Shown here: piece by piece, positions 15,413 to 45,994 of the stretch
Numbering within the stretch: the stretch's first letter is position 1
Layout of the letters: every line of letters starts with the position of its first letter
From: Candidatus Schekmanbacteria bacterium
Lineage (GTDB): Bacteria > SZUA-182
NCBI GenBank assembly: GCA_016235675.1
Contig: JACRJN010000111.1
Coordinates: 1-45,994, forward strand
Reading direction: 5' to 3'
DNA: 45,994 nt
Position numbers and translations under genes: made by a program
The notes under the pieces: generated by a model
What the model was told of the DNA's origin: nothing
Database searches by the model: none
What the model saw: the letters and a program-made list of their open reading frames with translations, nothing else

Positions 15413-15985
15413 TTAGCTTTTCATCTGCCCCCGCACAATGAAATTAGATGTACTCTTAAACCTGCCGGTGTGGGGATTAAGCAGTTCAAAGGTTAAGCCA
15501 TGCGTTTCATACAGGCGCTGCATTTGCTCTGTGGTATAAAAATGTTTTTCCGGAACAAAGGTTAGCCTTGTCTTTAAATACACCGCCAGCACCAGATAAC
15601 CGCCTGGTTTTAACACCCGCACTAACTCCCTGAAGGCTTGATCGGGGTTTACCGTATGGTGAATTACGCCCCAGGAATAGACCAGATCAAAAGTTTCATC
15701 TTTGAAGAGGATTCCCAATAAGCTGGCCTGATTGAAAACTATGTTGTTTTTTAAAGTCTTCTGAGCCAACCCGGCAGCGGTATTCATGGATTGCCGGCTA
15801 ATATCCACCCCTACCACCTTATCTGCCAATTCGGCCAGCGCCAAAGCATTCATCCTTGTACCGCAGCCGCCGTTAAGGGCTAAATGATAATGTTGCTGCG
15901 GGACAATGGCAAAGACATGCTCTCTAGTCTTTGCATAATCCGGCACATTCTGCGGCCAGTACCCATCATAAAAGCTGTCTGTCTA
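15413..15985 (-). pseudogene. SAM-dependent methyltransferase, 5'-truncated by a palindromic element
   Basis: The frame is open from the CTAG at 15983-15986 to the stop at 15413. It starts within coding sequence (DSFYDGYWPQNVPDYAKTRE) rather than at a credible start codon; GTG at 15946 would give 177 residues. HLALNGGCGTRMNALALAEL is motif I, VGVDISRQSMNTA the acidic loop, and FDLVYSWGVIHHTVNPDQAF the motif II region. The C-terminus VPEKHFYTTEQMQRLYETHG is duplicated at 11861-12103. A CTAGTAC-bounded palindrome begins exactly where the gene is cut, so the 5' end was lost by that insertion or a later deletion. Partial activity from the GTG start is possible but doubtful. Confidence 0.75.
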
Positions 15986-16197
15986 GTACCGTGTCACACT
16001 TAATTTTTCGGTTGCTTTTTACGTGCAAGGCAGTAATGTTCAGTTCCCCTCTTTGGCAAAGAGGGGTTAGGGGAGATTTTCTAATAAATTCCTTCCGGCT
16101 TTATGTTGTATAAAGACATTATTAGAAAATCCCCCTTGATCCCCCTTTGCCAAAGGGGGAAATGGAATGCGTCAAATTAAGCGTTACACGGTACTAG
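15983..16197. repeat. CTAGTAC-bounded nested palindrome, element E1
   Basis: Ends are CTAGTACCGTGT and the complement-related ACACGGTACTAG. Inside lies a second inverted pair, CCCCTCTTTGGCAAAGAGGG (about 16046-16065) with GGGGAGATTTTCTAAT, mirrored by ATTAGAAAATCCCCC and a CCTTTGCCAAAGG hairpin ending near 16160. The same inner core starts again at about 45851. It carries no gene and truncates the methyltransferase on its left. Confidence 0.8.
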
Positions 16198-16350
16198 TAC
16201 ACGATTTTACAAATAACTAAGATTATTTTGTGGGCGTCATTGCGAGCTTAAGCGAAGCAATCTAAAGTTCGTGCGTCTGAGATTGCTTCGGCGATAAGGC
16301 TGCCTCGCAATGACAGCATAAACTCAGTTATTTATAAAATCGTGTACTAG
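16194..16350. repeat. CTAGTAC-bounded nested palindrome, element E2
   Basis: The arms CTAGTACACGATTTTA (from 16194) and TAAAATCGTGTACTAG (to 16350) enclose an ATTGCGAG...CTCGCAAT core at 16236-16314. Its left CTAG is the right CTAG of element E1, so the two elements abut and share the tetranucleotide. Confidence 0.8.
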
Positions 16351-16377
16351 TTTGTTGTATGTTCGGCATCTTATTTC

Positions 16378-16480
16378 ACCGCCACCACAACATAATCCAG
16401 GGCATAGAGCTTTTGCCTCTCCAGATGCTCATCCAGCCAGGTAAGCAGCCGGACATAAAGTTTGTTGATCTTCATAGTCA
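16378..16480 (-). pseudogene. Unidentified C-terminal fragment
   Basis: The minus strand reads [20 protein letters not shown], then KLYALDYVVVAVK and TAA. The ending DYVVVAVK is common at the C-terminus of surface-glycan enzymes, but too little is left to name it. It joins the asnB remnant in another frame at about 16485. Confidence 0.4.
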
Positions 16481-16484
16481 GCGG

Positions 16485-16745
16485 GTGGAGTAAGGATAAG
16501 CTTCTCTCTCAACACCCGGTAATTATATATTTCGCCGTTAAAAACTATGGATAACCGCTTATCCTCATTGAACATTGGCTGATGACCACCAGCCAAGTCA
16601 ATGATACTTAAGCGCAAATGACCCAATCCTAAGTTCTAGCCAGAATAGGTCCGGAATCATCCGGCCCCCGACGAGACATCGCTTGGCACGTTTGCCTTAG
16701 CAAATTTTCATCATTTAACCCTATTATTCCACATATCCCGCACAA
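16485..16745 (-). pseudogene. Asparagine synthetase B remnant (glutaminase domain)
   Basis: The frame from about 16745 reads CGICGIIGLNDENLLRQTCQ, then [17 protein letters not shown] before a TAG near 16634. In the next frame it continues [20 protein letters not shown], then [20 protein letters not shown]. These are the Cys2 nucleophile, RGPDDSG and NGEIYNY motifs of the AsnB/GATase II domain, in order. A frameshift separates the two parts and everything after about residue 85 is lost. AsnB-like amidotransferases are common in polysaccharide loci, so this was probably part of the glycan cluster. Confidence 0.8.
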
Positions 16746-16749
16746 AACA

Positions 16750-17168
16750 GTAATTCTCCAGATTCCCTAAACTTTAGGAAAATATTTACTGTGAGGTTAC
16801 TACAAATCACGGACAAAGTCTATCCCAAAATTAGTACAAACGCTCATCCATATAGAGTTATACTCAAAAAGTTCACAAATTGTGATTTGCTCTAAAAAAT
16901 TGGTAGCGTAGAAATACCGCAGACCTGAGGCGTCATTGCGAGCGAAGCGAAGCAATCTCCATGCGTGCACATGAGATTGCTTCGGCGATAAGGCTGCCTC
17001 GCAATGACGCTTTAGGTCTCTTATTGAGAACGCTACCAAAAAATTAGAAGAGAAGATAGCCACGAAAAACACGAAAGGGCACGGAAAAAATAATTATTTA
17101 GTCAAATTAAAGTATAGTTGTATCCTGTCTTGGTAGCGCAGGCTGGAGGCCTGTGCTACCGCCGCCAG
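16750..17168. repeat. Gap with palindromes, no gene
   Basis: The compound repeat at 16900-17038 has outer arms TTGGTAGCGT / ACGCTACCAA and an ATTGCGAG...CTCGCAAT core at 16932-17008. A second hairpin at about 17132-17158 (GTAGCGCAGGCTGG / CCTGTGCTAC) abuts the efflux gene. Degenerate CCACGAAAAACACGAA repeats lie near 17058. A 90-codon open frame here is made of repeat sequence and is not called. Confidence 0.75.
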
Positions 17169-18599
17169 TTATTCCATCGCCTCCCAGCCGCCGCCGAGGG
17201 ATTTATAGACGGCCACCAAATTAGACAATACCGCGCTTCTGCTTTGGGCAAGTTGGCTTTCGACAGAATAGAGGGAGCGTTCGGCATCCAGCACCGGGAA
17301 GAAATCGCTCAATCCGTTTAAATATAGCTCCTGGGCTAAATCCAAAGCGCGGCAGTTAGCGGATCGGGCGTCTTCTAAATGGTAACGATGCTTTTGCTCA
17401 CGAACATAAGCGGTAAGGGCGTTTTCCACCTCTTCCATGGCGGTAAGCAGGGTTTGCTCATAGCGGATCAGGGCTTGTTCCTGTCGGGCAACTTGCGTTT
17501 TGATATTTGACCGGATGCGCCCGGCGTTGAACAGGGGAAAACGGAGGCTGGGGCCGAAAGACCAGAATTTGCTCGGCCATTGTAAAAGTGTGGAAATATC
17601 GGTGCTTTGAAAACCGAGGTTGCCGGTTAGGGTTAACTGAGGATATAAATCCGCGTAAGATGCCTGAGATTTGGCAAAGGCTGCGGCCAATTCCCGTTCG
17701 GACTGGCGCAAATCGGGACGGCGGCGCATTAAATCGGCGGGCAGACCGACCAAAACTTCATCGGGAGTGATCGGTAAATCTTTAATCGGGGATAATTCCG
17801 ACCACAACGCCCCCGGATCCAACCCTATCAATATTGCCAAACGATGAGCGGCGCGCTTTTGTGCAATTTCCAGGGTGGGAATTTGTGCCAAAGTCAGGGA
17901 TACCTGGGACTCGGCGCGGGATACATCCAGATCGTTGCCTAATCCGGCTTCCAGGCGCACCTTGGTCAGGAGAAAAAAATCCTGCTGTATTTTTAGATTC
18001 TTCCCGACAATGGAAATCTGCTGTTGCAGCCCCCGAAATTCGATATAATTGCGTGATACTTCAGCCAAAAGGCTAATCATTATTCCCCGCCGGGCTTCTT
18101 GAACCGCCTCCATATCCGCCTGCGCCGCCTCGACTAAATGTTTCGCCTGCCCGTAAATGTCGATTTCCCAGGAGGCATCGAATCCGGCCTGGTAGAAATT
18201 ATAATCCAGCCTGCTGGAAAATCCGCCGCCGGTTCGTCCGCCTGCGATAACCGCAGCATTCTGGCTGCGTCTGTTGCGGCTATAGGATGTCCCCGCATTT
18301 ACCTGGGGGGACAAATCGGCTTCCACCGCCCCGCGCAAGGCGCGCACTTCCCGCAAACGGCTGTCCGCCTGGCGTAAATCAAGATTTGAAGCCGCCGCCT
18401 GTTTAATCAACGCATCCAATTGAGGGTCTTTAAAATACCGCCACCAGCGGACATCTTCCTCTGATGTGGGTTTAATTTCTTTAGCTTGCGTCTCATCCCA
18501 TTTTTCAGGAACCACCAATTGAGGCGGCTGGTAATTCACCTTGGGAGCGCAAGCGGCGCTGATGGTGCACAGGATTAATATGTAGATGATTTTGTTCAT
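17169..18599 (-). CDS. Outer-membrane efflux lipoprotein (NodT/TolC-like)
   Basis: About 476 residues. The start at 18599 follows GAGAGG and gives a lipoprotein signal, MNKIIYILILCTISAAC, with the lipobox Cys at residue 17. The body has two repeated TolC halves: early LIKQAAASNLDLRQADSRLR with GAVEADLSPQVNAG, and later LMRRRPDLRQSERELAAAF with YADLYPQLTLTGNLGF. RRPDLR and YPxLxLxGxLGF are hallmarks of the RND-type outer-membrane factor (NodT) family. It forms the outer-membrane channel for the fusion protein and ABC pump encoded upstream, and is the last gene of the tetR-led operon. The 190-base gap to the preceding gene is filled with palindromes. Confidence 0.92.
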   Translation of the reverse strand: MNKIIYILILCTISAACAPKVNYQPPQLVVPEKWDETQAKEIKPTSEEDVRWWRYFKDPQLDALIKQAAASNLDLRQADSRLREVRALRGAVEADLSPQVNAGTSYSRNRRSQNAAVIAGGRTGGGFSSRLDYNFYQAGFDASWEIDIYGQAKHLVEAAQADMEAVQEARRGIMISLLAEVSRNYIEFRGLQQQISIVGKNLKIQQDFFLLTKVRLEAGLGNDLDVSRAESQVSLTLAQIPTLEIAQKRAAHRLAILIGLDPGALWSELSPIKDLPITPDEVLVGLPADLMRRRPDLRQSERELAAAFAKSQASYADLYPQLTLTGNLGFQSTDISTLLQWPSKFWSFGPSLRFPLFNAGRIRSNIKTQVARQEQALIRYEQTLLTAMEEVENALTAYVREQKHRYHLEDARSANCRALDLAQELYLNGLSDFFPVLDAERSLYSVESQLAQSRSAVLSNLVAVYKSLGGGWEAME

Positions 18600-18788
18600 T
18601 ATACCTCTCAGGTGCAAGTCAATGCTGTTGACTTAAGACGTATCGTTGGGGTTTAGTTGGGGTTTATCCCCAACAGCAGACGTAGGAACCCTGCATCGAA
18701 AGCGGGGGATGAACCCCCGCTCTACACGTAGCGCAGGGCTTTAGCCCTGCTTTCGGACACACATCAAACCCACTAGCCGGTAGCAGAC
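18600..18788. repeat. Palindrome cluster between efflux genes
   Basis: Contains TTGGGG...CCCCAA and GGGGGATGAACCCCC hairpins (about 18651-18725), a GCAGGGCTTTAGCCCTGC hairpin near 18726-18743, and a further AGACC-TAACG-GTCT hairpin near 18784-18797. The 18651-18725 segment is nearly repeated at 21031-21102. No promoter is evident. Confidence 0.7.
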
Positions 18789-19901
18789 CTAACGGTCTGC
18801 ACTACGTAAAAATTCCTCACCCCTCACGCCTTTAGTCCCTTCCGCCTTATCCTCAATCGGTGCAGCTTCGATAAACACATCCATTTGCTGCCCGACATAA
18901 ACCGGCAGACGATGCCGGTCAAAGCTATAGATCACCTGCAATACCCGCGTATCGACGCGTTCGGTACTGTCGCCGCTCAAAGATCGCTTGGGTACCACAT
19001 AGGGCTCGGTACGCCGGTAAACCAAATCCGTTTTCAAATCGTTGTTACTTCTGACAAAGGCAATGGCGCGCGCCCGATCTTTAAAACGCCAGGCGTCATT
19101 TTCATCTATGTCGATGCGTACATGGAGTTGTTCCAGATTTCCCACCACCATCAACGGTTTGGATAACACCCCGGCCTGGGCGTATTCGCCGGTGCGGATA
19201 TTTATTTGCAAAACCTCGCCATCGATCGGCGAGCGAATAATCAAGCGCTCGATCTCGGTTTCTATGGCTTTGATTTGAGCGGCGGCCGCTTTTATTTCCG
19301 CTTCCGCCACGGCAATATCAGGTGCCCATCCGCCCGCTTTGATTTGTGTTAGCTGTGTTTGGGTCTCGGCTAATTTATCTTCGGCTAATTTCACGGCATA
19401 ACGGCGCGATGTGACTTCTTCCTGGCTTACCGCCCGTTTATCGCTGAGATTCTCCACCAAAGACAGGCGGGAGCGGGCCTCGGCTAAAGCGGTTTCGGCC
19501 TCATTTACCCGCGCCTGCATTGGTGCGACATCCTCTATGCGGGGCAGGCTTTTTAAGCGGATAAGCTTTTCCTGCGCGGTATTTAAAGCCGCCCGGCGTA
19601 CCATAGTTTCCGCTTTTTGATTCCGATCATCCAGTAAAAATAACGGCTCGTTCTTGTGCACCTTTTGCCCTGCAGCGACCTTAATCTCCTTGACGATTCC
19701 CGACAGGGGAGTGCCCACCGCGATATTTTCCGTTTCCGCTTCGATTATTCCCGCTCCGGCGATATAGGCCGGATACGGGGCTTTAGAAGGCTGCGCCGGC
19801 GGCAACATTGCCGGAACTTCCTTGCTTCCCGCGATTACCGTGCGGATGGCGAAGATTAGCCCGAAGAGAGCTAAGAGGGGGAGAATATATTTGCGTATCA
19901 T
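18789..19901 (-). CDS. HlyD-family membrane fusion protein (DevB-like)
   Basis: A 370-residue periplasmic adaptor. An N-terminal signal anchor (YILPLLALFGLIFAIRTVIA) is followed by the first lipoyl half (GIIEAETENIAVGTPLSGIV, DRNQKAETMVRRAAL), a long alpha-hairpin coiled coil of about residues 85-195 (MQARVNEAETALAEARSRLS, VSQEEVTSRRYAV), and the second lipoyl half IRSPIDGEVLQINIRTGEYA. A beta-barrel with VRIDIDENDAWRF follows. This links the inner-membrane pump to the outer-membrane channel. The start ATG at 19901 has AAAGGAAA upstream. The last residues (RGEEFLRSADR) run into repeat sequence at 18789-18800, so the original C-terminus may have been altered. Confidence 0.92.
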   Translation of the reverse strand: MIRKYILPLLALFGLIFAIRTVIAGSKEVPAMLPPAQPSKAPYPAYIAGAGIIEAETENIAVGTPLSGIVKEIKVAAGQKVHKNEPLFLLDDRNQKAETMVRRAALNTAQEKLIRLKSLPRIEDVAPMQARVNEAETALAEARSRLSLVENLSDKRAVSQEEVTSRRYAVKLAEDKLAETQTQLTQIKAGGWAPDIAVAEAEIKAAAAQIKAIETEIERLIIRSPIDGEVLQINIRTGEYAQAGVLSKPLMVVGNLEQLHVRIDIDENDAWRFKDRARAIAFVRSNNDLKTDLVYRRTEPYVVPKRSLSGDSTERVDTRVLQVIYSFDRHRLPVYVGQQMDVFIEAAPIEDKAEGTKGVRGEEFLRSADR

Positions 19902-19920
19902 ATGGGTTTCCTTTGTTTAA

Positions 19921-20073
19921 TACCAAGTTGCGTTCATAGGAGTAAATTACGTTTTAATGGTCATTGCGAGGCAGCCTTATCGCCGAAGCAATCTCAGATG
20001 CTACAATTCGAGATTGCTTCGCTCCGCTCGCAATGACAACCTTCTATTTTACTTCTATGAATGCAACTTGGTT
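19921..20073. repeat. Compound palindrome between fusion protein and ATPase genes
   Basis: The outer arms ACCAAGTTGCGTTCATAG (19922-19939) and CTATGAATGCAACTTGGT (20055-20072) differ at one position. The inner ATTGCGAG...CTCGCAAT core is 19960-20037. A sister with the same arm family is at 22345-22487. Confidence 0.85.
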
Positions 20074-20091
20074 AAGCTGTCAGCTTTTAGT

Positions 20092-20802
20092 TTACAACTC
20101 CTTCGCACTATTGACCACCTTCTCGATATGCCCGTCGTCCATTTTGGCGATGCGGTCGGCGAATTCGAAGATACGGGCGTCGTGGGTAACTACGATCAGC
20201 GCACGGGTAGGGCCGACAGCCACTTCCCGCAACAGCTCCATAATCTTATGGCCGGTTTGGTGATCCAGGGCGCTGGTCGGCTCATCGCAAACAATTAACC
20301 GGGGATTGTGCACCATCGCTCTGGCGATGGCTACCCGCTGCTGCTGTCCGCCGGAAAGATCGGCGGGCAGGCGGTTAAGCTTATCACTCAAGCCTACCCG
20401 CTCCAAAAACCCGACGGCTTTTTTAATCGCCTGGCGTTTACTCATCCCGTTTATTACCAGCGGAACACAGGCATTTTCCGCCGCGGTAAGGGTGGGAAAC
20501 AGGTTATACGCCTGAAAAACAAAGCCGATGTTCTGTCCGCGGAAACGGGTTCTGTGCTTTTCCCGCATCTTATTGAAATCATGATCAAACACCACACAAT
20601 CGCCGTTGTCATGATTAAGGATTCCGGCAATCACGGAAATCAGCGTGGTTTTGCCGCAGCCCGATGGCCCCACCAGCATCATCAATTCACCGCTGTAGAC
20701 CTCCAGGTCGATGCCGCGTAATGCCTGCACCTGAGCGCTTCCGCTGCCGTATGTTTTAGTGACCTGGCGGCAAGAAACCGCCAGGGAAGAGTTGTTAGCC
20801 AT
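20092..20802 (-). CDS. ABC transporter ATP-binding protein (MacB/LolD/DevA type)
   Basis: A 236-residue nucleotide-binding subunit. Walker A is MLVGPSGCGKTTLIS near residue 45; the Q-loop is FVFQAYNLFPTLTA; the signature LSGGQQQRVAIARA is near residue 145; Walker B is LIVCDEPTSALD; and the H-loop is VTHDARIFEFAD. NLFPTLTAAENA and the length are typical of the MacB/LolD/DevA exporter subfamily. It powers the FtsX-like permease encoded upstream. The ATG at 20802 has only a weak ribosome binding site. Confidence 0.93.
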   Translation of the reverse strand: MANNSSLAVSCRQVTKTYGSGSAQVQALRGIDLEVYSGELMMLVGPSGCGKTTLISVIAGILNHDNGDCVVFDHDFNKMREKHRTRFRGQNIGFVFQAYNLFPTLTAAENACVPLVINGMSKRQAIKKAVGFLERVGLSDKLNRLPADLSGGQQQRVAIARAMVHNPRLIVCDEPTSALDHQTGHKIMELLREVAVGPTRALIVVTHDARIFEFADRIAKMDDGHIEKVVNSAKEL

Positions 20803-20833
20803 AGTTATTTTTTTAGAGGCCAGGTGTTAGGGA

Positions 20834-21008
20834 CTAGTACGCCGTCCATTTAATGTTGACGGGTTCCAACATGTCATCCCCGAATGCCTTTATCGGGGAT
20901 ATGGTGTTGAAAAAAACCAGATTCCCGATAACATCATTCGGGAATGACAAAACGAAGAGTATAAAATCTTTATCCCAACCCGTCAATATAAAATGGACGC
21001 TGTACTAG
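20834..21008. repeat. CTAGTAC-bounded nested palindrome, element E3
   Basis: Ends are CTAGTACGCCGTCCATTT and AAATGGACGCTGTACTAG, with TTGACGGG / CCCGTCAA just inside. The inner core is the GTCATCCCCGAAT...ATTCGGGAATGAC family (about 20873-20949), related to cores near 24669 and 37242. It shares its terminal heptamer with E1 and E2 but not its arms. Confidence 0.8.
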
Positions 21009-21030
21009 GTGCTAGTTAAGAAAATATAGC

Positions 21031-21102
21031 ATTGGGGTTCATCCCCAACAACAGACGCAGGAACCTTGCATCGGATGCGGGGGATGAACCCCCGCGCTAC
21101 GA
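21031..21102. repeat. Double-hairpin repeat
   Basis: TTGGGGTTCATCCCCAA followed by GCGGGGGATGAACCCCCGC. Nearly the same sequence lies at 18651-18725 in the same operon. Confidence 0.7.
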
Positions 21103-21134
21103 ATTGCTAGCCCCTAATCCCTAGCCTCTTATTT

Positions 21135-22295
21135 TTACCCCTTAAAAACAATCGCCGGTTCCAGCTTCATCACCTTGTGAATGCTCAGCAGCGCCGAGAT
21201 CAGGCAAATGATCACAATGGCCGTACCGCTGATGACCAAGATCTGCCAGGGCAGCTTAAAGGCCAGTTCGGTATTGCGGGCTAAATAGCCTATCGATGAC
21301 GCCGCCCCCACTCCCAGTCCGTAGCCGATACTGCCGACAACGAGGGCTTGCAGGATAATCATGCGCAGCAATTTGCCGTTAGTTGCTCCCATCGCCTTGA
21401 GCGTACCGAAATAGCGCAGGTTTTCCACGGTAAAGTTATAAAAGGTCTGTCCGGCGATAATCACCCCCACGACAAACCCTAAAGTCACCGCAATCCCGAA
21501 GTTTACCGGGATGCCGGTATTTTTTAGAAAATATTGGATAGTAATCATTTTAAACTGGTCTTTGGTATGTGCTCCCAATCCGGTCTGGCGCTGGATCCGG
21601 TCGCATAAAGCGGCAATATCCTGACCGGGTTTGGCCTTGACCAGGATGAACGACAGGCTTTTGCGCTCCTGCGGGGCAAAAATCTTGGTGCGGGAATAAG
21701 TGGTGTAAATTACCGGAAAGGCCATAAAAACCTTGGAGCCGCGGAAAAATCCCGCTACCACCGCCCGGTGATCATTTAATTCCAGGGTGTCTCCCAGTTT
21801 CAGGGGAATCCGCTCTCCGTCAGGCGTCAGGGGAGGCTTGGCCAGTTTTTTTTGGGAAGCGACTATATCCACGATAACGCTGTCGCTTTGGCGCAAATCG
21901 GATAATTTGCCCTGCACCATTTCCGAAGGGCCGCCGATTAACGTGGCGTCATCCAATCCCATTACCGAACAGGTCTGAAAATTGCCGTCCTCCATCCTGA
22001 CGCGCAAAAGCCCGCGGTAGAGCGGCACCGCCCATTCCACACCTTTGACCCCGCGTACCCGCAAAACCTGGGTATCCTTCAAGGGCTTGATGTCGTCTAT
22101 ATACTGAACCTTGGAATCCATCACCCAAATATCGGGCAAGCTTGCATCGCTAATCGCTCCATAAGCGCGCGCCATGATTCCGGTAAAGATTCCCAATTGC
22201 TGGGTAATCAGCAGGGAGGCAAAGGTTAAGCCGGTCAGGATGCCGATATATTTGGCGCGGTCGCCGATTAGCATTTTCAGGGCGATGAAATTCAT
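21135..22295 (-). CDS. FtsX-like ABC permease (DevC/MacB type)
   Basis: About 386 residues. The start at 22295 (MNFIALKMLIGDRAKYIGIL) is chosen because the longer frame to 22322 is made of repeat sequence. The first membrane helix is GILTGLTFASLLITQQLGIF. A long periplasmic domain follows (about 45-255), with WVMDSKVQYIDDIKPLKD and VIVDIVASQKKLAKPPLTP. Three C-terminal helices follow, including FGIAVTLGFVVGVIIAGQTF and the coupling segment LRYFGTLKAMGATNGKLLRM. The four-helix FtsX fold and the partner genes fit a DevBCA- or MacAB-type exporter of lipids, glycolipids or drugs. Substrate unknown. Confidence 0.9.
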   Translation of the reverse strand: MNFIALKMLIGDRAKYIGILTGLTFASLLITQQLGIFTGIMARAYGAISDASLPDIWVMDSKVQYIDDIKPLKDTQVLRVRGVKGVEWAVPLYRGLLRVRMEDGNFQTCSVMGLDDATLIGGPSEMVQGKLSDLRQSDSVIVDIVASQKKLAKPPLTPDGERIPLKLGDTLELNDHRAVVAGFFRGSKVFMAFPVIYTTYSRTKIFAPQERKSLSFILVKAKPGQDIAALCDRIQRQTGLGAHTKDQFKMITIQYFLKNTGIPVNFGIAVTLGFVVGVIIAGQTFYNFTVENLRYFGTLKAMGATNGKLLRMIILQALVVGSIGYGLGVGAASSIGYLARNTELAFKLPWQILVISGTAIVIICLISALLSIHKVMKLEPAIVFKG

Positions 22296-22308
22296 AGTTA
22301 ATCTCGTT

Positions 22309-22487
22309 GGTAGCGCAGGCATCTTGCCTGTGCTAACGAAGGCAGGGGATTAATACCAAGTTACGTTCATAGAAGTAAATTACGTTTTAATTGTCATAGC
22401 TCAGCAGCCTTACCGCCGAAGCAATCTCAGACGCTACAATAAAATCGAGCTTGCTTCGCTTAAGCTCGCAATGACAACCTTCTATTT
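22309..22487. repeat. Compound palindrome between tetR and permease genes
   Basis: A GTAGCGCAGGCATCTTGCC hairpin near 22309 is followed by the ACCAAGTTACGTTCATAG arm (22345-22362) and an ATTGCGAG-family core at 22393-22475. The right arm survives only as TTCTATTTTACTT and then becomes the 3' end of tetR, whose TAG lies inside the repeat. Confidence 0.75.
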
Positions 22488-23111: not shown

Positions 23112-23133
23112 ATTTAAACCCCTGTTTAAAACA

Positions 23134-23231: not shown

Positions 23232-23375
23232 AATTGGTTGCGTTCTCAATAAGAGACCCAAAGCGTCATTGCGAGGCAGCCTTATCGCCGAAGCAATCTT
23301 AATACGCTCGCCTGGAGATTGCTTCGCTCCGCTCGCAATGACGCTTCAGGTCTCTGTATTTCTACGCTACCAATT
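23232..23375. repeat. Compound palindrome downstream of PEP-CTERM gene
   Basis: The outer arms AATTGGTTGCGTTCTC and the related GTAGCGTAGAAAT-type complement ending CTACCAATT surround an ATTGCGAG core at 23265-23342. An AGAGACC / GGTCTCT pair lies between. The arm family is shared with 16900-17038 and the right side of 42219-42320. Confidence 0.8.
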
Positions 23376-24117: not shown

Positions 24118-24778
24118 AAAGTATTATTTATGGTACGTTACGTTACCAATAACACAATATGTGTATTGTTGCAATATGTATTTTGACGGACACGGGGGGA
24201 GGGATTTTGAAATAATGTTGACCTACATCAGTAGCACAGGCATCTTGCCTGTGATGTGGGCAACGCCCACACAAAAACGGTACAATTACTGGAAGTCGTT
24301 GGTTGAATCAGAGTTTCCATCCCATGCCGCAACACAGGCAAGATGCCTGTGCTACCAAATAACCTGAGTTCGGGATAAGATAAATCGTAGTCCCAGCCCT
24401 TTAGGGCTGATTTTCATGGCGAAGCCATGCAATAACGACTCACAAATGGTTAAATCTTCTCAAGTTAATTCACCCCTTTCGGACTGAACATGCCTTTTAT
24501 CTCAGCCTAAGGCTGAAAATGCGTGGCTAAAGCCACGGGACTACATTTTTATGTCGAACTCAGGTTAAATAGCAAACACAGGCTGGAAGCCTGTGCTACC
24601 GAATGCAGAACAACATTGATGTTTCGGCGTGTTCCCACGCCGAAACATCAATTAAGACTCTAAGTCTGTCATTCCCGAATGTCTTTATCGGGAATCTGGT
24701 TTTTCAAGCAGTTAAAACCAGATTCCCGCTCAAAATCACTGCGGGAAGACAGATTGAGGACTTGTGCAAGAAGCTCAA
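24118..24778. repeat. Repeat-filled gap upstream of PEP-CTERM gene
   Basis: No gene. From left to right: ACAGGCATCTTGCCTGT at about 24237 with its inverted partner ACAGGCAAGATGCCTGT near 24331; a compound palindrome 24361-24567 with arms CCTGAGTTCGGGATAAG / CGAACTCAGG around AGCCCTTTAGGGCT and CATGGC-GAAGCCATG hairpins; an ACAGGCTGGAAGCCTGT hairpin near 24581; a perfect 16-bp stem TTGATGTTTCGGCGTG at 24616-24651; and a GTCATTCCCGAAT-family element at 24669-24752. Confidence 0.75.
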
Positions 24779-31125: not shown

Positions 31126-31194
31126 GTCATTGCGAGCAGAGCGAAGCAATCTCTACTCGTGCGTTTGAGATTGCTTCGCTCTGCTCGCAATGAC
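31126..31194. repeat. ATTGCGAG-family palindrome, simple form
   Basis: GTCATTGCGAGCAGAGCGAA and its mirror TTCGCTCTGCTCGCAATGAC surround a short loop. No outer arms are visible, so this is the bare core. Confidence 0.85.
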
Positions 31195-33075: not shown

Positions 33076-33149
33076 TTTTCTCTTATGCTAAGGTTTGAGG
33101 CTCGAGTAGCGAGGCTTGAGGAAAATCATGACCTTGCTTCGCAAGAGTC

Positions 33150-33303
33150 CTGGTATAGCGTTTCATAAAAAGGTATACAAACCTGTCATTGCGAGCGGTA
33201 GCGAAGCAATCCCGATTCTACTAGGCACTTCCGAGATTGCTTCGGCGATAAGACTGCCTCGCAATGACAATTAAATGTACATGTTTTTGAAACGTTATAC
33301 TAG
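33150..33303. repeat. Compound palindrome near tRNA gene
   Basis: The left arm CTGGTATAGCGTTTCA and right arm TGAAACGTTATACTAG surround an ATTGCGAG core at 33185-33268. The right end carries CTAG, while the left has decayed to CTGG. It resembles the CTAGTA-ended elements elsewhere. Confidence 0.8.
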
Positions 33304-33351
33304 CCGTTTCTCAAGCCTCAATGCGCAAGCCTCAAGCCTATTTCATATGAT

Positions 33352-37177: not shown

Positions 37178-37424
37178 AGAGAAGACAGGAGTCAGAAGGG
37201 ACTGTGCCGCAACTACTTGCAAACCCAAAAAACCTTCAAAATGTCATTCCCGTGAAACTTGTCCTCGTGAAAAACGGGGAACGGGAATCCAGTCTTTTCA
37301 AATAGTTCTGGATTCCCGCTTCTGCGGGAATGACAACTGCGGAGTTGCGGCACAGACCCTGAATTCAGAAGCCAGAATAGATGTCATCCTTTATTTATTC
37401 TGACTTCTGACTCCTGTCTTCTCT
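37178..37424. repeat. Triple-nested palindrome between Nif3-like gene and dnaG
   Basis: The outer 20-bp arms AGAGAAGACAGGAGTCAGAA (37178-37197) and their exact complement (37405-37424) enclose the second arms GGGACTGTGCCGCAACT / AGTTGCGGCACAGACCC (37198-37214, about 37332-37348), which enclose a GTCATTCCCG...CGGGAATGAC core (37242-37335). The right end stops two bases from the stop of the Nif3-like gene. Confidence 0.85.
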
Positions 37425-38483: not shown

Positions 38484-38521
38484 TTTTGGCCTGCTTCCAA
38501 TTACCGCAAAGCAGGCCAAAA
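38484..38521 (-). terminator. Terminator after rpsU
   Basis: A perfect 13-bp stem, TTTTGGCCTGCTT with AAGCAGGCCAAAA, and a 12-base loop. The A/T ends make it U-rich on either strand. It would separate rpsU from the Nif3-like gene, dnaG and rpoD, or attenuate read-through. Confidence 0.75.
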
Positions 38522-38550
38522 TTTGAAATAACTCATATTGAACACAAACA

Positions 38551-38748: not shown

Positions 38749-38973
38749 ATGTTTCGCCTCCCTCCCTATATATTTTTCTCAAAACCGATTAATATCATAT
38801 TCCCTGAACAGATACAATTATAGCTTCTTGATCGGGGTGACCGGTCAAGTAAATAAGCATAAATAAAAAGTTTACTCTTTATGATATTAAAAGGCCAGCA
38901 GTATATTCAGTATCCGGAATAAAAACTATAGCAATATTTTCCCTTTTTGTCAAGGCGATATTGGGGCATAAAA
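38749..38973. other. AT-rich gap, no gene seen
   Basis: About 220 AT-rich bases between rpsU and the downstream end of the histidine kinase gene. It must contain the rpsU promoter on the minus strand, but I see no convincing -35/-10 pair, and no repeats of the families found elsewhere. Confidence 0.5.
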
Positions 38974-40053
38974 TTACCCTTTCGGCAAAAATACCGTGAA
39001 ACTACTCCCCTTCCCGACCTGGCTTTCTACCTGTATCTGCCCGCCGTGTTCCTGCACGATTTTATAAGATATAGCCAGTCCCAAACCGCTGCCGCTCTTT
39101 TTAGTGGTAAAAAACGGGTTGAAAATATTGGCTAAATTCTCCCGGCTGATCCCATCTCCGGAATCCTCTATGGTTACCGCCAGATAATCCTTATTTTTAA
39201 CGCTAACCTGTTCGATTTTGCAATTAATCTCGCCGCTCCCCGAAATCGCCTGCAAAGCGTTCAGCAACAGATTGAGAAACACCTGGCGCATCCTTTCCCG
39301 ATCTAAAGAAAGCATAGGCAGTAATGCGGCGCCGGTTTTATTGATGACCACCCCGGCCAGTTTTGCCTGTGGGTCGAAAAACTTAATAACGCTTTCCAGT
39401 TCCTTGTTTAAATCTGTGGGGGATAATTCCAAAGGGGCGGGACGGGCAAAATCCAGAAAATTGGTCAAAACCTTATTCAACCGCTCTACTTCTTTGAGCA
39501 AAATCTGCGTCATTTTATGCTTGGGATTTTCCGGGGTAAAATCGCGGCTGATAATCTCCGCCGCACCCTGGATCGATCCCAAAGGATTGCGGATTTCATG
39601 AGCCAGCCCCGCCGTCAATTGGCCGATGGCGGATAATTTTTCCGCCCGCAACAACTCCCGCTCCATACTTTTCAGTTCCAGCAGCGATTTTTCCAGTTCC
39701 TGAGCGGTTTTCCGATGGCGTTCCTTTTCCTCTTTCTCCCTGGTGGCCAGCACCCCGGTCACCAGCGCTACCACATTATAAAGAACCATCTCCAGCGCCT
39801 TTTCCACCGTACGCGCCGGATCGATGTGCTCCATATGCCAAAAGGCATGGGGCGTGTAGACCATGCTGGTAAAGATCGAGGCGCATAACCCGCCCCGTAT
39901 CCCGCCGATAAAAGCGGCGAAAATTATCGGGATATAATAGAGCCGCCGGTAAATATCGTGGAAATAGTGATAACCGGTGCTGGTATAATAATGGAAAAAG
40001 GTTATAACCGCAATGGAGCCGTAGATTATCAGGAGATTTTTTTTGTTTTCCAT
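38974..40053 (-). CDS. Membrane sensor histidine kinase
   Basis: 359 residues. The N-terminal 100 residues hold about three or four membrane segments (NLLIIYGSIAVITFFHYYTS, YYIPIIFAAFIGGIRGGLCA, VLYNVVALVTGVLA), similar to DUF4118-like sensor domains. A coiled linker (EKERHRKTAQELEKSLLELK) leads to the HisKA H-box QLTAGLAHEIRNPLGSIQGA with His near residue 153. The HATPase domain has the N-box LLNALQAIS, G1 IEDSGDGISRENL, F-box IFNPFFTTKKSGSGLGLAIS and the G2 loop. It autophosphorylates and passes phosphate to a response regulator, none of which is in the window. It is therefore an orphan here; signal unknown. Confidence 0.92.
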   Translation of the reverse strand: MENKKNLLIIYGSIAVITFFHYYTSTGYHYFHDIYRRLYYIPIIFAAFIGGIRGGLCASIFTSMVYTPHAFWHMEHIDPARTVEKALEMVLYNVVALVTGVLATREKEEKERHRKTAQELEKSLLELKSMERELLRAEKLSAIGQLTAGLAHEIRNPLGSIQGAAEIISRDFTPENPKHKMTQILLKEVERLNKVLTNFLDFARPAPLELSPTDLNKELESVIKFFDPQAKLAGVVINKTGAALLPMLSLDRERMRQVFLNLLLNALQAISGSGEINCKIEQVSVKNKDYLAVTIEDSGDGISRENLANIFNPFFTTKKSGSGLGLAISYKIVQEHGGQIQVESQVGKGSSFTVFLPKG

Positions 40054-40065
40054 GTTTTTTATTTT

Positions 40066-40092
40066 ACCACGAAGACCACGAAGACCACGAAG
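40066..40092. repeat. 9-bp tandem repeat
   Basis: ACCACGAAG occurs three times in a row, directly upstream of the kinase start. A degenerate cousin lies near 17058. Confidence 0.8.
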
Positions 40093-40160
40093 AAAAATGA
40101 GATTTTATTGGAAATATTTTTTTGACCTCTGCTCCGGAACGTAGACTTCCTTTATTCATC

Positions 40161-40350
40161 GTAGGGGCGGGGTCTCCCCCAATGCTGTTGACTTAAGGAA
40201 TAATGGAAAGGGTTTTCCGTAATCTGTCATTGCGAGCTTAAGCGAAGCAATCTCGATTTTATTGTAGCGGCTGAGATTGCTTCGGCGATAAGACCGCCTC
40301 GCAATGACAATTCCTTAAGTCAACAGCATTGGGGGAGACCCCGCCCCTAC
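40161..40350. repeat. Compound palindrome with 41-bp perfect arms
   Basis: Bases 40161-40201 are the exact reverse complement of 40310-40350 (41 of 41), starting GTAGGGGCGGGG and ending CTTAAGGAAT. Inside, the ATTGCGAG...CTCGCAAT core occupies 40226-40308. The arm motif AATGCTGTTGACTTAAG also appears near 18620. It lies between the divergent kinase and hrcA genes. Confidence 0.9.
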
Positions 40351-40403
40351 ATTCGTGCTATTCGTGGTTTAAAAATCATCAAAGGATATTAAGAAATCCC
40401 CTC

Positions 40404-40469
40404 TTGACAAATCTCTCTAAACTTGTTATTTTATAATCGTTGTTAGCACTCTCATTAAATGAGTGCTAA
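40404..40469 (+). promoter_or_regulatory. Heat-shock promoter with CIRCE operator
   Basis: TTGACA is at 40404-40409, with TATTTT (17-base spacer) as the likely -10; TATAAT at 40432-40437 has a 22-base spacer. The perfect CIRCE element TTAGCACTC-N9-GAGTGCTAA covers 40443-40469. HrcA binds CIRCE and shuts off the operon at normal temperature; GroEL assists HrcA folding in known systems. Confidence 0.95.
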
Positions 40470-40495
40470 CGGTCAGATTGACGGAGGGTTTGTTT

Positions 40496-41542
40496 ATGCC
40501 CGACATTACTTTAGACGAACGCAGCCAATTAATTTTAAATGCAGTGATCAGTTGTTATATCACCACTGCCGATCCGGTCGGTTCGCGTACCCTCTGGAAA
40601 AAATATAAACTGACCGTCAGCCCGGCTACGGTACGCAACATTATGGCCGATTTGGAGGAAATGGGTTATCTCCAGCATCCCCACACCTCCGCCGGTCGCA
40701 TTCCGACCGAGATGGGTTACCGCTTTTATGTCGATGCCCTGACCAAAGCCAAAAGTAAGGCCGATAAAATTGCCCCGCAGATTAAGGAATTATCCCGATG
40801 GTACTCCGGCGGCAGTAAAAACGCCGATGATTTGTTTAAAAGCCTTTGCCGGGAATTATCCGCCATCTCTCAATATATCGGGGTAATAACAACTCCCAAA
40901 TGGCAAAACATTATTTATAAGCATATCAAATTTATCTGCCTGCGGGAAAATCAGTATTTAGTTATTTTCGTCACTCAAAACGGCATCGCCCAACAGCGGC
41001 TGATCGAAGTCAAAGAAGCATATACCCAGGAACAGTTAGACCAGATGGCGCGCTGCCTGAATGATAATTTAAACGGTCAGCCGCTAACGCAAGTCAGAAA
41101 AAAAATATTGGAATTGATGGCGCAGGAAAAAGATGCTTATAATCGCTTGTTGCAGGATGCTGTTGAATTGAGTCAGGGAGTATTGAATAATATTGCCGAA
41201 AGCAAGCTGTATGTGGAAGGCGAATTGAATATGTTAAATCAGCCGGAATTTGCCGACATTGACAAGATGAAGGCAATCTTCCGCGCCTTTGAAGAAAAAC
41301 ATCATCTGATTAAACTGTTAGATAAATGCTTAAACGACGACGGGGTCAACATCTTTATCGGTTCGGAAAACGAGGCCGATAGAATGCGGGATTGCAGCCT
41401 GGTTACGGCAACATACCGGGATCATAACCAGGTGGTGGGAACGCTGGGTGTAATCGGCCCGGTGCGGATGCCTTATTCCCAGGTTATCTCCCTGGTCGAA
41501 TATGCCGCCAAACTGTTGAGCGAAATTTTAAGCAAACAATAA
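40496..41542 (+). CDS. hrcA: Heat-inducible transcription repressor HrcA
   Basis: About 348 residues. The start at 40496 follows ACGGAGGGTTTGTTT; the longer frame overlaps CIRCE. The N-terminal winged helix has RSQLILNAVISCYITTADPV and VSPATVRNIMADLEEMGYLQ, then HPHTSAGRIPTEMGYRFYVD, the HrcA signature. The GAF-like and dimer regions follow, with GVNIFIGSENEADRMRDCSL and GTLGVIGPVRMPYSQVISLV at the end. It represses its own operon through the CIRCE element just upstream. Confidence 0.97.
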   Translation: MPDITLDERSQLILNAVISCYITTADPVGSRTLWKKYKLTVSPATVRNIMADLEEMGYLQHPHTSAGRIPTEMGYRFYVDALTKAKSKADKIAPQIKELSRWYSGGSKNADDLFKSLCRELSAISQYIGVITTPKWQNIIYKHIKFICLRENQYLVIFVTQNGIAQQRLIEVKEAYTQEQLDQMARCLNDNLNGQPLTQVRKKILELMAQEKDAYNRLLQDAVELSQGVLNNIAESKLYVEGELNMLNQPEFADIDKMKAIFRAFEEKHHLIKLLDKCLNDDGVNIFIGSENEADRMRDCSLVTATYRDHNQVVGTLGVIGPVRMPYSQVISLVEYAAKLLSEILSKQ

Positions 41543-41562
41543 ACCAAGCGAGGTAAAAATCG

Positions 41563-42105
41563 GTGTGTGCTGACGATATAAAACCAGATGAAACCCCTGA
41601 GGAAAAAGTTGAGGCTCAGGATACAAATAATAGCGAAAACCTGAAAAAGGAACTGGAACTCAAAAAAACCGAGGCCGCCGACCTCTATGACCGGCTATTG
41701 CGCAAACAGGCGGAATATGAAAACTCCCGCAAGCGCCTGGAAAAGGAACGTAACGAGGCTATCCGCTATGCCACTGAAGAGTTGATCCGCGAGCTTTTGC
41801 CGGTAATTGATTCTTTGGAACAGGCTTTAAGCTCCGCCAATAAAAATCATGACATCCAGGCGTTATCCGAGGGCGTCAAATTGATTTTAAGCCAGTTGAA
41901 AGCTGTGTTGCAAAGGGTGGGATTGGCTGATCTGAAAGCGCAGGGCCAGCCCTTCAATCCGGAACAGCATGAAGCGGTGCAGGTTATCGAAAGCGATGAG
42001 CACGAGGATAATACCGTAGTGCAGGAATTGCGCAAAGGGTATATGTTAAGCGGGCGGATTATTCGTCCTGCGATGGTGACGGTGGCCAAGAAGAAATCGG
42101 CGTAA
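41563..42105 (+). CDS. grpE: Nucleotide exchange factor GrpE
   Basis: 180 residues, starting at GTG (41563) about 20 bases after hrcA. The N-terminal part is acidic and then a long helix (ADLYDRLLRKQAEYENSRKR). The C-terminal beta domain contains GQPFNPEQHEAVQVIESDEH and LSGRIIRPAMVTVAKKK. GrpE opens DnaK for ADP release. The spacing from hrcA indicates one transcript. The 338-base gap to dnaK is unusual and full of palindromes. Confidence 0.95.
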   Translation: MCADDIKPDETPEEKVEAQDTNNSENLKKELELKKTEAADLYDRLLRKQAEYENSRKRLEKERNEAIRYATEELIRELLPVIDSLEQALSSANKNHDIQALSEGVKLILSQLKAVLQRVGLADLKAQGQPFNPEQHEAVQVIESDEHEDNTVVQELRKGYMLSGRIIRPAMVTVAKKKSA

Positions 42106-42443
42106 TTTGATGTTTGTTGATGTTTCGGCGTGTCCCCACGCCGAAACAATTAAGGGGGAACGTTACCCCTTTTACAGTTTCGGTGTGAGGAGACACCGAA
42201 ACATCAAAACTGAAAAATGTCATTGCGAGCTTAAGCGAAGCAATCTCAGACGCACGCATGGAGATTGCTTCGCTCCGCTCGCAATAACGCTACGGGTCTC
42301 TTATTGAGAACGCTGCCAAAATTTTTGATGTTTGTTATTGTATCCCGTCTTTGGTAGCACAGGCTGGAAGCACATGACACAGGCAAGATGCCTGTGCTAC
42401 CGGATTAATCTTATAGCAGGGTATCAACAGGAGGTTGTTAAAT
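42106..42443. repeat. Palindrome cluster inside the heat-shock operon
   Basis: From left to right: a TGTTTCGGCGTG / CACGCCGAAACA hairpin (about 42120-42148), AAGGGG / CCCCTT, GTTTCGGTGT / ACACCGAAAC (42177-42202), an ATTGCGAG core at 42219-42288 with only a right outer arm (GGTCTCTTATTGAGAACGCT), then GGTAGCACAGGCTGG and ACAGGCAAGATGCCTGT hairpins to about 42402. The dnaK ribosome binding site AGGAGG follows at 42429-42434. The hairpins may tune grpE to dnaK read-through or RNA stability. No second CIRCE is present. Confidence 0.85.
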
Positions 42444-44369
<1,926 letters not shown>

Positions 44370-44377
44370 TGAGTAAC

Positions 44378-44405
44378 GAGGACTGAGGTATTAATCTCAG
44401 TCCTC
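44378..44405 (+). terminator. Hairpin after dnaK
   Basis: GAGGACTGAG and CTCAGTCCTC form a perfect 10-bp stem with an 8-base loop, 9 bases after the dnaK stop. There is no T-run, so it may be a partial terminator or an mRNA 3' protector before rsmE. Confidence 0.55.
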
Positions 44406-44424
44406 AGTCCTGAGCAACTACCTT

Positions 44425-45159
44425 ATGCCCTCCTTCTTCATCAACCCATCGGCAATCGTCGACGACGAGATCACCCTCGATCCGCAGGAATCGCACCATA
44501 TCCAACGCGTCCTGCGCCTGGACGTCGGCGATGAAATTATGCTCTTCGACGGTATCGGCAACAAATACTTAGCCGTCGTCACTTCAAACACATCTCAACA
44601 CGTTAAAGCTAAGCTATTACAAAAACAGACTCTTGAGCCATCATCGGTTAACCTTACCCTCATGCAATGCCTGCCGCGCCTGGATAAGATGGATTTGATC
44701 GTGCAAAAAGCGGTGGAACTGGGAGTCTCCCGCATCATCCCCGTCATCAGCCAACGCAGCCAGGCCGCACCTTTAGACCGACTGGCGGATAAGCAAACCC
44801 GCTGGCAGCGCATCGCCCAGGAAGCCGCCAAGCAATGCGGACAGCCGATCCCCCCGCGGGTCGAAAAAGCCCAAAAACTGCCAAGTCTGATAGATCAAAC
44901 CCCAGCCGACGCCCTCTGCATCGCCTGCCACGAAGTCACCCCCCACACCAGCCTGAAAACCCTGCTCCACCGCGTCCCCAACAGCCAAACCATCAACCTG
45001 CTGATCGGCTCCGAAGGCGGCCTCACCCCCGATGAAGCGGATGAACTGCACCGCCACGGATGGAAACTCGCCGCCCTCGGTCCCCGCATCCTGCGCTCCG
45101 AGACCGCCGCCATCACCGCCCTGGGGATTATTCAATATGAGTTGGGGGATTGGGAGTAA
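44425..45159 (+). CDS. rsmE: 16S rRNA (uracil-1498-N3)-methyltransferase RsmE
   Basis: 244 residues. The N-terminal PUA-like domain has PQESHHIQRVLRLDVGDEIM. The SPOUT domain follows with LPRLDKMDLIVQKAVELGVS, IIPVISQRSQAAPLD and the SAM-binding knot INLLIGSEGGLTPDEADELH, GPRILRSETAAITALGIIQY. It methylates U1498 of 16S rRNA in the decoding region. The ATG at 44425 has a weak ribosome binding site. It is commonly near dnaK/dnaJ/prmA genes in other bacteria; here dnaJ and prmA are absent. Confidence 0.96.
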   Translation: MPSFFINPSAIVDDEITLDPQESHHIQRVLRLDVGDEIMLFDGIGNKYLAVVTSNTSQHVKAKLLQKQTLEPSSVNLTLMQCLPRLDKMDLIVQKAVELGVSRIIPVISQRSQAAPLDRLADKQTRWQRIAQEAAKQCGQPIPPRVEKAQKLPSLIDQTPADALCIACHEVTPHTSLKTLLHRVPNSQTINLLIGSEGGLTPDEADELHRHGWKLAALGPRILRSETAAITALGIIQYELGDWE

Positions 45160-45222
45160 TTTTTGGCTTGACAAATTCCTTCAATCCTTTTATCCTTACC
45201 TTAATCTTGAAAGGAGTTTTTT

Positions 45223-45681
45223 ATGCAAAAGGAACATTTTGAAATTCTGCTGGAACATATAGACAGTAATGTTGAATTAATCCTGGAAGGCCATGCTGTC
45301 TTAAATAAAAGGATTGACAACCTTGCCGGAGAAGTAAGAGATCTGCGTTCAGATTTTGAATTTTTAAAGAAAGAAAATGCCATAGCGCACAAAAATATTT
45401 TTAAAGAGCTAAAAGAAAATCGAAAAGAGCATAAAATCTTTCAACAAGAGCTAAAAGAACTCCGCCAAGAGACAAAAGACATCCGGAAAGAACTTGCCGA
45501 ATTCCGCCGGGAAAACGATGCCACTCATGCCGTTTTTATGGAAAAATTTAACGCAAATGATGCCGCTCACGCTGCTAACGCCGCCGTTCATGCCGTTTTT
45601 GAGAAAAAATTGGACGCCTACACTCAAGATGTATCCGATTTAAAAGCCAGAGTCACCCGTCTGGAAACCACATACCATTAA
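45223..45681 (+). CDS. Hypothetical coiled-coil protein
   Basis: 152 residues with a good ribosome binding site (AAAGGAGTTTTTT). It is strongly charged and helical throughout: HIDSNVELILEGHAVLNKRI, DNLAGEVRDLRSDFEFLKKE, then E/K-rich heptads (KELKENRKEHKIFQ, LKELRQETKDIRKELAEFRR). An A/H-rich stretch (NANDAAHAANAAVHAVFEKK) interrupts, and SDLKARVTRLETTYH ends it. No enzyme motif is visible. The layout suggests a homo-oligomeric coiled coil. It is separated from rsmE by 63 bases and probably has its own promoter (TTGACAAATTCC near 45168). Confidence 0.75.
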   Translation: MQKEHFEILLEHIDSNVELILEGHAVLNKRIDNLAGEVRDLRSDFEFLKKENAIAHKNIFKELKENRKEHKIFQQELKELRQETKDIRKELAEFRRENDATHAVFMEKFNANDAAHAANAAVHAVFEKKLDAYTQDVSDLKARVTRLETTYH

Positions 45682-45994
45682 ATGTTAATTCCCCCCTTTT
45701 TATCCCCCTGGAAATTTAACCAAAGACTAAATTTGGGGCAGGTAATTATTGCCGAAACGACGGCAAACACCCCTAGTGGTTCTACTGTAACCTGAGTTCG
45801 GGATAAGTTTATTGTAAATACAATAAGTTAGACATATCTGCAAATAATTTTCTCCTCTTTAGCAAAGAGGGGTGGGGGAGATTTTCTAATTGAAATCAAC
45901 CTTAAGTAATTATTCAAATACAGTATTTTATTGAAAAATATGATTTTTTTATGGAAGATTACCATATAAAAATCCCCCTTAATCCCCCTTTGCC
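45682..45994. repeat. Repeat element running off the window end
   Basis: No gene. CCTGAGTTCGGGATAAG at 45791-45807 is the same 17-base arm found at 24363-24379. From about 45851 the CTCTTTAGCAAAGAGGGG / GGGGAGATTTTCTAAT core of element E1 reappears, and the mirrored AATCCCCCTTAATCCCCC starts its right half at about 45970 before the sequence ends. Confidence 0.8.

What the first reader, a model, noticed from the sequence alone, without database searches (positions are those of the whole stretch)
15983..45994. Modular nested palindromes: shared cores with swapped outer arms
Seen in sequence: many gaps hold palindromes within palindromes. Inner cores fall into families (ATTGCGAG...CTCGCAAT; CTCTTTGGCAAAGAG with GAGATTTTCTAAT; GTCATTCCCG...CGGGAATGAC; AGGGCTTTAGCCCT). 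Outer arms also fall into families (CTAGTAC-; TTGGTAGCG-; ACCAAGTTGCG-; CCTGAGTTCGG-). Arms and cores recombine: the ATTGCGAG core sits in at least five different arm sets (16194, 16900, 19921, 33150, 40161), and the CCTGAGTTCGG arm encloses two different cores (24361, 45791). Inference: elements insert into the loop or centre of existing palindromes, or arms are rebuilt by template switching. REP/RAYT elements and MITEs are known, but this swapping would be unusual.
Basis: partly seen in the sequence, partly recalled or inferred. Interest (0 to 1): 0.75.

Follow-up and report, generated by a model that had tools for sequence, protein, structure and literature searches.

The report
REP palindromes riding inside many mini-transposons
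The nested palindromes are small repeat pairs (REP dimers) carried in the middle of many families of gene-less mini-transposons, so the same core appears in different arms because different transposons picked it up and then copied themselves whole; REPs without a known transposase may spread this way.

Summary
Arms and cores form a many-to-many table, in this genome and in two related genera. The arms are terminal inverted repeats (TIRs) of more than ten miniature transposon (MITE) families. Several have clear target-site duplications: 8 bp (T), 10 bp (D/K), 4 bp (I, E2), CTAG-type. The cores are mostly dimers of tagged repetitive extragenic palindromes, chiefly the CGTC type. In 979 kb of the 2.98 Mb genome, the ATTGCGAG core sits in seven TIR families. 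The D/K and E backbones each carry four core types. Two direct nestings with an empty-site comparison and duplications were found. Swapping is mainly historical: of 57 cores with both arms identified, 53 have matching arms and 4 are chimeric (about 42 expected under free pairing), and cores are more alike within a family. Outer insertion sites are mostly not palindromic, so general centre-targeting is not supported. The elements are composites of known parts (MITEs, REP dimers), close to Coxiella QMITE2 and Neisseria mosaics. Unusual are the number of combinations, and that CGTC REPs, reported to lack a transposase, move as MITE cargo. No matching transposase was found, and how cores first entered is unknown.

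The parts
15987..16193 (.). MITE family F, TIR TACCGTGTCACACTTAA, CTAG duplications at 15983-15986 and 16194-16197; core CTCTTTGGCAAAGAG..GAGATTTTCTAAT (16039-16167)
   Evidence: further copies C18:908, C100:5664
16198..16346 (.). MITE family A (ACZ group), TIR TACACGATTTTATAAATAA, shares one CTAG with F; R1 core 16236-16314
16902..17037 (.). MITE family T, TIR GGTAGCGT, 8-bp duplication AAAAAATT on both sides; R1 core 16932-17008
19922..20072 (.). MITE family G, TIR ACCAAGTTGCGTTCA; R1 core 19960-20037; duplication not resolved
20838..21004 (.). MITE family P, TIR TACRSCGTCCATTTWATRTTGACGGG, CTAG on both sides; core R3 (GTCATCCCCG..CGGGAATGAC)
   Evidence: same TIR with a GTAG-type REP core at C30:8786 and C172:9029
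23236..23371 (.). MITE family T, 8-bp duplication AATTAATT on both sides; R1 core 23265-23342
24361..24566 (.). Family Q, TIR AACCTGAGTTCGG, core of GTAG-type palindromes (AGCCCTTTAGGGCT)
31126..31194 (.). R1 dimer with no recognisable MITE arm
33154..33299 (.). MITE family B, TIR TATAACGTTTCATAAAA, flanked by CTGG and CTAG; R1 core 33185-33268; lies between GGCTTGAG repeats 33091-33123 and 33307-33339
37198..37359 (.). MITE family E2, TIR GGCTGTGCCGCAACT; R3 core; the same family carries R1 at C172:5570 and C25:32329
40180..40331 (.). MITE family D, TIR CAATGCTGTTGACTTAAG, R1 core 40226-40308; lies inside a GTAG-type REP palindrome (40161-40179 / 40332-40350)
42219..42288 (.). R1 dimer with a T arm on one side only
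45790..45994 (.). Family Q arm with the CTCTTTAGCAAAGAG..GATTTTCTAAT core, cut by the contig end
   Evidence: complete copy C29:5907-6151
9043..9156 (.).

Best explanation
These are composite mini-transposons. The outer arms are the ends of several unrelated families of DDE-type MITEs. The cores are REP dimers, mainly CGTC-type (GTCATTGCGAG, GTCATTCCCG, and GTCATTCTGA in relatives), some GTAG-type, and a few other palindromes. A limited number of founding events placed a REP dimer between the two ends of a MITE. The composite was then copied as a unit by a transposase reading only the ends, so the core was neutral cargo. Different backbones acquired the same abundant REPs, and one backbone acquired different REPs in different copies and genera, giving the many-to-many table. 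Later MITEs inserting into REPs of existing composites added layers. Rare recombination through the shared core may make two-family chimeras. Shown: the table, duplications of several families, co-inheritance of arm pairs and cores, and two direct nestings with an empty-site comparison. Inferred: that the founding step was REP insertion, that DDE transposases did the copying, and that CGTC REPs owe much of their copy number to this.
For: Duplications: T 12/20 perfect 8 bp and 16/20 at least 6/8; D/K 7/13 perfect 10 bp, I 7/8 and E2 5/6 perfect 4 bp. Table: R1 in T, A/C, B, D, E, E2, G; D/K with R1, R3, GTAG REP and CCCTCCCCC; E2, P, Q, G each with two contents. E keeps two different ends (left ATTTCAATTATACC, right RTATTAAAATACC) around four cores; left-arm identity beyond the TIR between core classes is 0.70-0.86 against 0.45 background (right arms weaker, 0.59-0.80). 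Across genera, related 29-bp CTAG-flanked ends carry R1 here, R3 in G007 (with two copies lacking a core) and a GTCATTCTGA core in G005. TIR GATGGTTTCGTAAAAAGT carries R3 here and R1 in G007. Co-inheritance: 53 matching against 4 mixed, about 42 mixed expected; core identity 0.907 within and 0.853 between families, 0 of 1000 permutations as large. Direct nesting: L190 against L189, an E2-like MITE in a REP inside a MITE with CGAAG duplicated; C31:6985, an E MITE inside R1 with CTTAA duplicated, where the uninterrupted R1 form occurs 23 times.
Against: No transposase with these ends was found: PF01610, PF00872 and PF13358 have no match in G000, and the four PF01609 matches lack these TIRs at the gene ends. 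The two core-less copies in G007 could be deletions rather than never-filled sites. 18 of 99 R1 dimers have no recognised arm, some of them decayed MITEs, so R1 may also move alone. Only a third of a draft metagenome genome was read, on contigs chosen partly for holding matches. Duplications for B, F, G, P and Q are weak or uninformative.
Confidence: 0.75

Rival explanations
1. Palindrome-centre targeting: the REP dimers, or a single-strand transposase acting on them, insert preferentially into hairpin loops, so MITE centres are chosen as targets rather than being the only tolerated place.
For: Cores sit near the middle of most backbones, e.g. T 29/29, B 31/31 and G 38/35 bases on the two sides. 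Two REP-associated tyrosine transposases are encoded, one (C67) flanked by GTAG REPs. D/K copies at C3:12694 and C108:16301 lie in the apex of GC palindromes. Di Nocera 2013 (PMC3733652) reports REP dimers inside palindromes in three species.
Against: Insertion into an end would destroy mobility, so survivors must have the core in the middle. Reconstructed target sites of 75 outer MITEs are palindromic (score 9 or more) in 5 cases against 3% of control points.
Confidence: 0.2
2. Plain whole-element families: each arm pair has its own core and apparent swaps are divergence or mis-clustering.
For: Most copies are co-inherited whole elements. T, A, H, I, J and F were each seen with essentially one core type in the sample (T and A have some unclassified matches, probably noise).
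Against: D/K and E carry four core types each; E2, P, Q and G two contents; R1 and R3 are distinct families with little in common beyond GTCATT.
Confidence: 0.05
3. Arms are exchanged by recombination or template switching through the shared core.
For: Four chimeras of two TIR families with breakpoints at or within the core: C172:9182, C77:2809, C18:790, C122:5466. C77:2809 joins two same-side core halves.
Against: 4 of 57, against about 42 under free pairing. Short-read metagenome assembly can join repeats wrongly, and some contigs end inside R1 composites. R1 and R3 share too little for homologous exchange.
Confidence: 0.15
4. The cores are kept because they do something for the host or the MITE, such as ending transcription or acting as a hinge that brings the ends together.
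For: Interiors are nearly always palindromic and lengths mostly cluster near 115-160 bp whatever the core.
Against: No direct test was made. No Rfam family matches. Core type is interchangeable.
Confidence: 0.1

Closest known systems
CGTC- and GTAG-tagged REPs (Di Nocera et al. 2013, PMC3733652)
   Same: Cores carry the (C/T)GTC tag, a stem opening with AT, and head-to-head dimer layout; GTAG REPs are present too, one set next to a REP-associated tyrosine transposase. That paper notes REP dimers within palindromes in A. variabilis, T. roseum and H. neapolitanus.
   Different: There one enclosing palindrome consensus is given for each REP family. Here one REP dimer occurs in at least seven MITE families, several with duplications. 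The paper says CGTC REPs seem to lack a dedicated transposase; here most sit as MITE cargo.
Coxiella QMITE2 (PMC5896051)
   Same: A MITE with TIRs and 7-11 nt direct repeats that contains a GTAG REP, with an IS inserting into the REP.
   Different: One MITE family with one REP; no many-to-many table and no CGTC REP cargo described in the passages read.
Neisserial intergenic mosaic elements and dRS3
   Same: dRS3 is a CGTC-1 REP (PMC3733652) lying in mosaics with other repeats.
   Different: The mosaics are described as interleaved clusters of repeats. Here the units are discrete MITEs with the REP dimer between the two ends.
REPINs (Bertels and Rainey 2011, PMC3116915)
   Same: REP doublets forming hairpins; R1 and R3 have this layout.
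   Different: REPINs are held to be moved by RAYT transposases. None was found next to the CGTC cores here.
TIMEs, mosaic miniature elements (PMC4133298)
   Same: Non-autonomous elements sharing ends but carrying different core modules.
   Different: Tn3-family ends and larger cores with genes or plasmid modules, not REP dimers.

Membership tests
[quoted passage not shown]
   TIRs of about 11-30 nt, most elements 100-210 bp, 2 to over 20 copies in 979 kb
[quoted passage not shown]
   T 8 bp 12/20 perfect; D/K 10 bp 7/13; I 4 bp 7/8; E2 4 bp 5/6; CTAG or variants for A, B, F, P, weakly informative because nearly constant; not resolved for G
[quoted passage not shown]
   PF01609, PF01610, PF00872 and PF13358 searched in G000; none carries these TIRs at its ends. 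The genome is about 90% complete and other transposase families were not searched. Orphan MITEs are common, so this is not a strict requirement.
CGTC-tagged REP dimer | (C/T)GTC tag, 8-9 bp stem opening with AT, head-to-head dimers | tested here: inconclusive
   Tag, AT opening and head-to-head layout are visible in R1 and R3; stem and loop lengths were not measured against the published families
REPIN (RAYT-mobilised REP doublet) | Association with a RAYT gene | tested here: not met
   Four PF01797 genes in G000; none has an R1 dimer at its ends. The C67 RAYT is flanked by GTAGCACAGGC REPs
Neisserial intergenic mosaic elements | Clusters of dRS3 interleaved with other repeats | tested here: not met
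   Units here are discrete TIR-bounded elements with one central dimer

The most novel reading that the evidence does not exclude
CGTC-tagged REP dimers are exchangeable cassettes: one REP dimer is replaced by another at the GTC tag inside a standing MITE backbone. This would explain why the ACZ backbone carries GTCATTGCGAG, GTCATTCCTG and GTCATTCTGA dimers in three genera with similar short linkers next to the tag.
Probability: 0.12. Interest if true: 0.75.

Novelty: new variant of a known kind. Interest (0 to 1): 0.5.

Why it matters
CGTC REPs are reported from five phyla and were said in 2013 to lack a dedicated transposase, with mobilisation by 'a broad spectrum of transposases' offered as a guess (PMC3733652). 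Here most dimers of one CGTC-type REP sit as cargo between the ends of at least seven MITE families, several with target duplications, which makes that guess directly testable. It also shows that repeats clustered by core or by arm alone will be misread as one family.

Tried and rejected
Free arm swapping: rejected. General insertion of outer elements into palindrome centres: rejected for most copies. IS630-type, IS256-type and ISL3-type parents: no match in this genome; DDE_Tnp_1 genes found but without these ends. RNA-family origin: only a tRNA in the window. Only nine genomes of this phylum are held, so wider generality was not tested. An exact-sequence literature search gave noise. No structure prediction was made because no protein is involved.
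Full report
What was checked. The window is the whole of contig C71 of a draft metagenome genome of 2,976,116 bases in 190 contigs, 89.65% complete. I therefore read stretches totalling 979,212 bases on 42 contigs, chosen for length and because many hold matches. Counts below are for that sample, not genome estimates.

The window has 35 inverted-repeat diagonals against a mean of 1.7 in 50 block shuffles; the sample has 734 against 75, and 149 enclose another. The ATTGCGAG half-site occurs 253 and 241 times on the two strands of the genome, with none for the reversed sequence.

What the cores are. The commonest core, R1, is a head-to-head dimer GTCATTGCGAG...CTCGCAATGAC, usually 77-84 bases. 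R3 (GTCATTCCCG or GTCATCCCCG) has the same layout, and relatives carry GTCATTCTGA. Tag, AT-opening stem and dimer form fit the CGTC-tagged REPs of Di Nocera et al. (PMC3733652); I did not measure stems and loops against their families. Other cores are GTAG-type REPs, a CCCTCCCCC palindrome and a GGGGATTTTCTAAT palindrome.

What the arms are. They are TIRs of MITEs. Target duplications show it: T (GGTAGCG) composites have 12 of 20 perfect 8-bp duplications and 16 of 20 with at least 6 of 8 (swapped control 0.43 for the latter, because the targets are AT-rich). D/K (CAATRCYGTTSACTTAA) has 7 of 13 perfect 10-bp duplications, I (GAGGTAGTTGCAAAAGT) 7 of 8 and E2 (GGCTGTGCCGCAACT) 5 of 6 perfect 4-bp ones. 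A, B, F and P are flanked by CTAG or close variants (for example GTAG on both sides at C67:10782), informative only where the variant repeats. G and Q are unresolved. Duplications of several lengths imply more than one transposase.

The table. R1 lies in seven TIR families: T, A/C, B, D, E, E2, G. R3 lies in D, E2, P, H, I, J. D/K carries R1, R3, GTAG REP and, once, CCCTCCCCC; E carries R1 (3 copies), CCCTCCCCC (8), GTAG REP (2) and a GGCTTCGGGC repeat (1); P and Q carry two each; G carries R1 or an unrelated interior. E is the strongest case: its two ends differ from one another and each is recognisable beyond the 11-nt TIR across core types. Left-arm identity between core classes is 0.70-0.86 against 0.45 for unrelated 17-mers, 99th percentile 0.65. 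Right arms are weaker, 0.59-0.80, so the right-arm link between the R1 and CCCTCCCCC classes (0.59) is not by itself beyond background. Some D/K subfamilies share little beyond the TIR and a few bases, so for them capture of different interiors by the same ends is as likely as exchange.

Other genera. In class-mate G007 the CTAG-flanked backbone carries R3 in most copies, and two copies (L083, L177) have no core, joined as GCATTATAAACC. In G005 it carries the GTCATTCTGA dimer. In our genome two copies of family C (C56:14465, C183:28986) have similar ends around R1. TIR GATGGTTTCGTAAAAAGT holds R3 here and R1 in G007. The two core-less copies could be deletions.

Direct nesting. L190 differs from L189 in G005 by an E2-like MITE inserted in the REP of the composite, with CGAAG repeated on both sides. 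At C31:6985 an E MITE with a GTAG-type core sits in an R1 half next to a T arm, with CTTAA on both sides; the uninterrupted form ATTGCGAGCTTAAGCGAAGCAAT occurs 23 times.

How much swapping. Of 99 R1 dimers, 53 have two arms of one family, 4 have arms of two families, 18 have no recognised arm, and the rest are one-sided or at contig edges (arm threshold passed by 0.5% of random flanks). Free pairing would give about 42 mixed. Several of the 18 look like decayed MITEs (for example C3:5378, C24:5710, C15:5997). R1 cores are more alike within families (0.907) than between (0.853), with no permutation of 1000 reaching this. So most copies are whole-element copies; the table reflects a limited number of founding events.

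Centre targeting. For 75 elements with ends and duplication I joined the flanks and scored palindromes at the insertion point: mean 5.2 against 4.2 at control points (p 0.0003), but only 5 of 75 reach 9 against 3% of controls. The small shift is what AT-rich symmetric targets would give. Outer elements therefore do not generally choose palindrome centres. Cores lie mid-element because the ends must stay intact, which does not require targeting.

Who moves them. Two REP-associated tyrosine transposases are encoded: C67:23337, flanked by GTAGCACAGGC REPs, and C185:4174, flanked by TTTCGGCCTG hairpins. Neither is flanked by R1. No ISL3, IS256-type or DDE_3 transposase matched in this genome, and the four DDE_Tnp_1 genes lack these ends. 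That DDE transposases copied the composites is inferred from the duplications.

Literature. REP dimers inside palindromes were noted for three species in PMC3733652, which also states that CGTC REPs seem to lack a dedicated transposase. A MITE containing a GTAG REP is known in Coxiella, QMITE2 (PMC5896051). IS insertion into REPs is known (PMC1525189, listed, not read). I found no report of one REP dimer shared by many MITE families, but the library holds only openly licensed papers and the searches were few.

Verdict. A new variant of a known kind: composite MITEs with interchangeable REP-dimer cargo.

Noticed in passing
G000:C67:23337-23528 (L078): A REP-associated tyrosine transposase gene (NF047646) flanked on both sides by GTAGCACAGGC REPs, the same REP as at window 24231-24355: a GTAG REP/RAYT pair.
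   Followed up: partly
G000:C185:4174-4449 (L076): A second REP-associated tyrosine transposase, flanked by inverted copies of a GATGTTTCGGCCTG hairpin resembling the repeats at window 24615-24652 and 42117-42207.
   Followed up: partly
window 15983-16351 and G000:C18:789-1121: The adjacent pair of MITEs F and A, sharing one CTAG, recurs at C18 with 96% identity over most of its length, but there the A element's other arm is a T-type arm: either a duplicated pair with a swapped arm or an assembly error.
   Followed up: partly
window 5511-6161: IS982-family transposase reading frame, apparently missing its start (an upstream stretch may be the interrupted first part); no MITE ends of the families described here at its borders.
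   Followed up: partly
window 40161-40350: The D element lies in a GC palindrome whose two flanks read GGGGTCTCCCC and GGGGAGACCCC, inverted rather than direct copies, so the expected duplication is not seen there.
   Followed up: no
G000:C42:5513-5689 against C100:5502-5634: Two J elements differ by 44 bases inside the R3 core, including a GTCCTC-tagged palindrome: possibly a REP inserted within a REP dimer.
   Followed up: no
contig starts G000 C187, C92, C100, C25: Several contigs begin inside R1 composites, some of them near-identical to one another, suggesting recent copies that broke the assembly.
   Followed up: no
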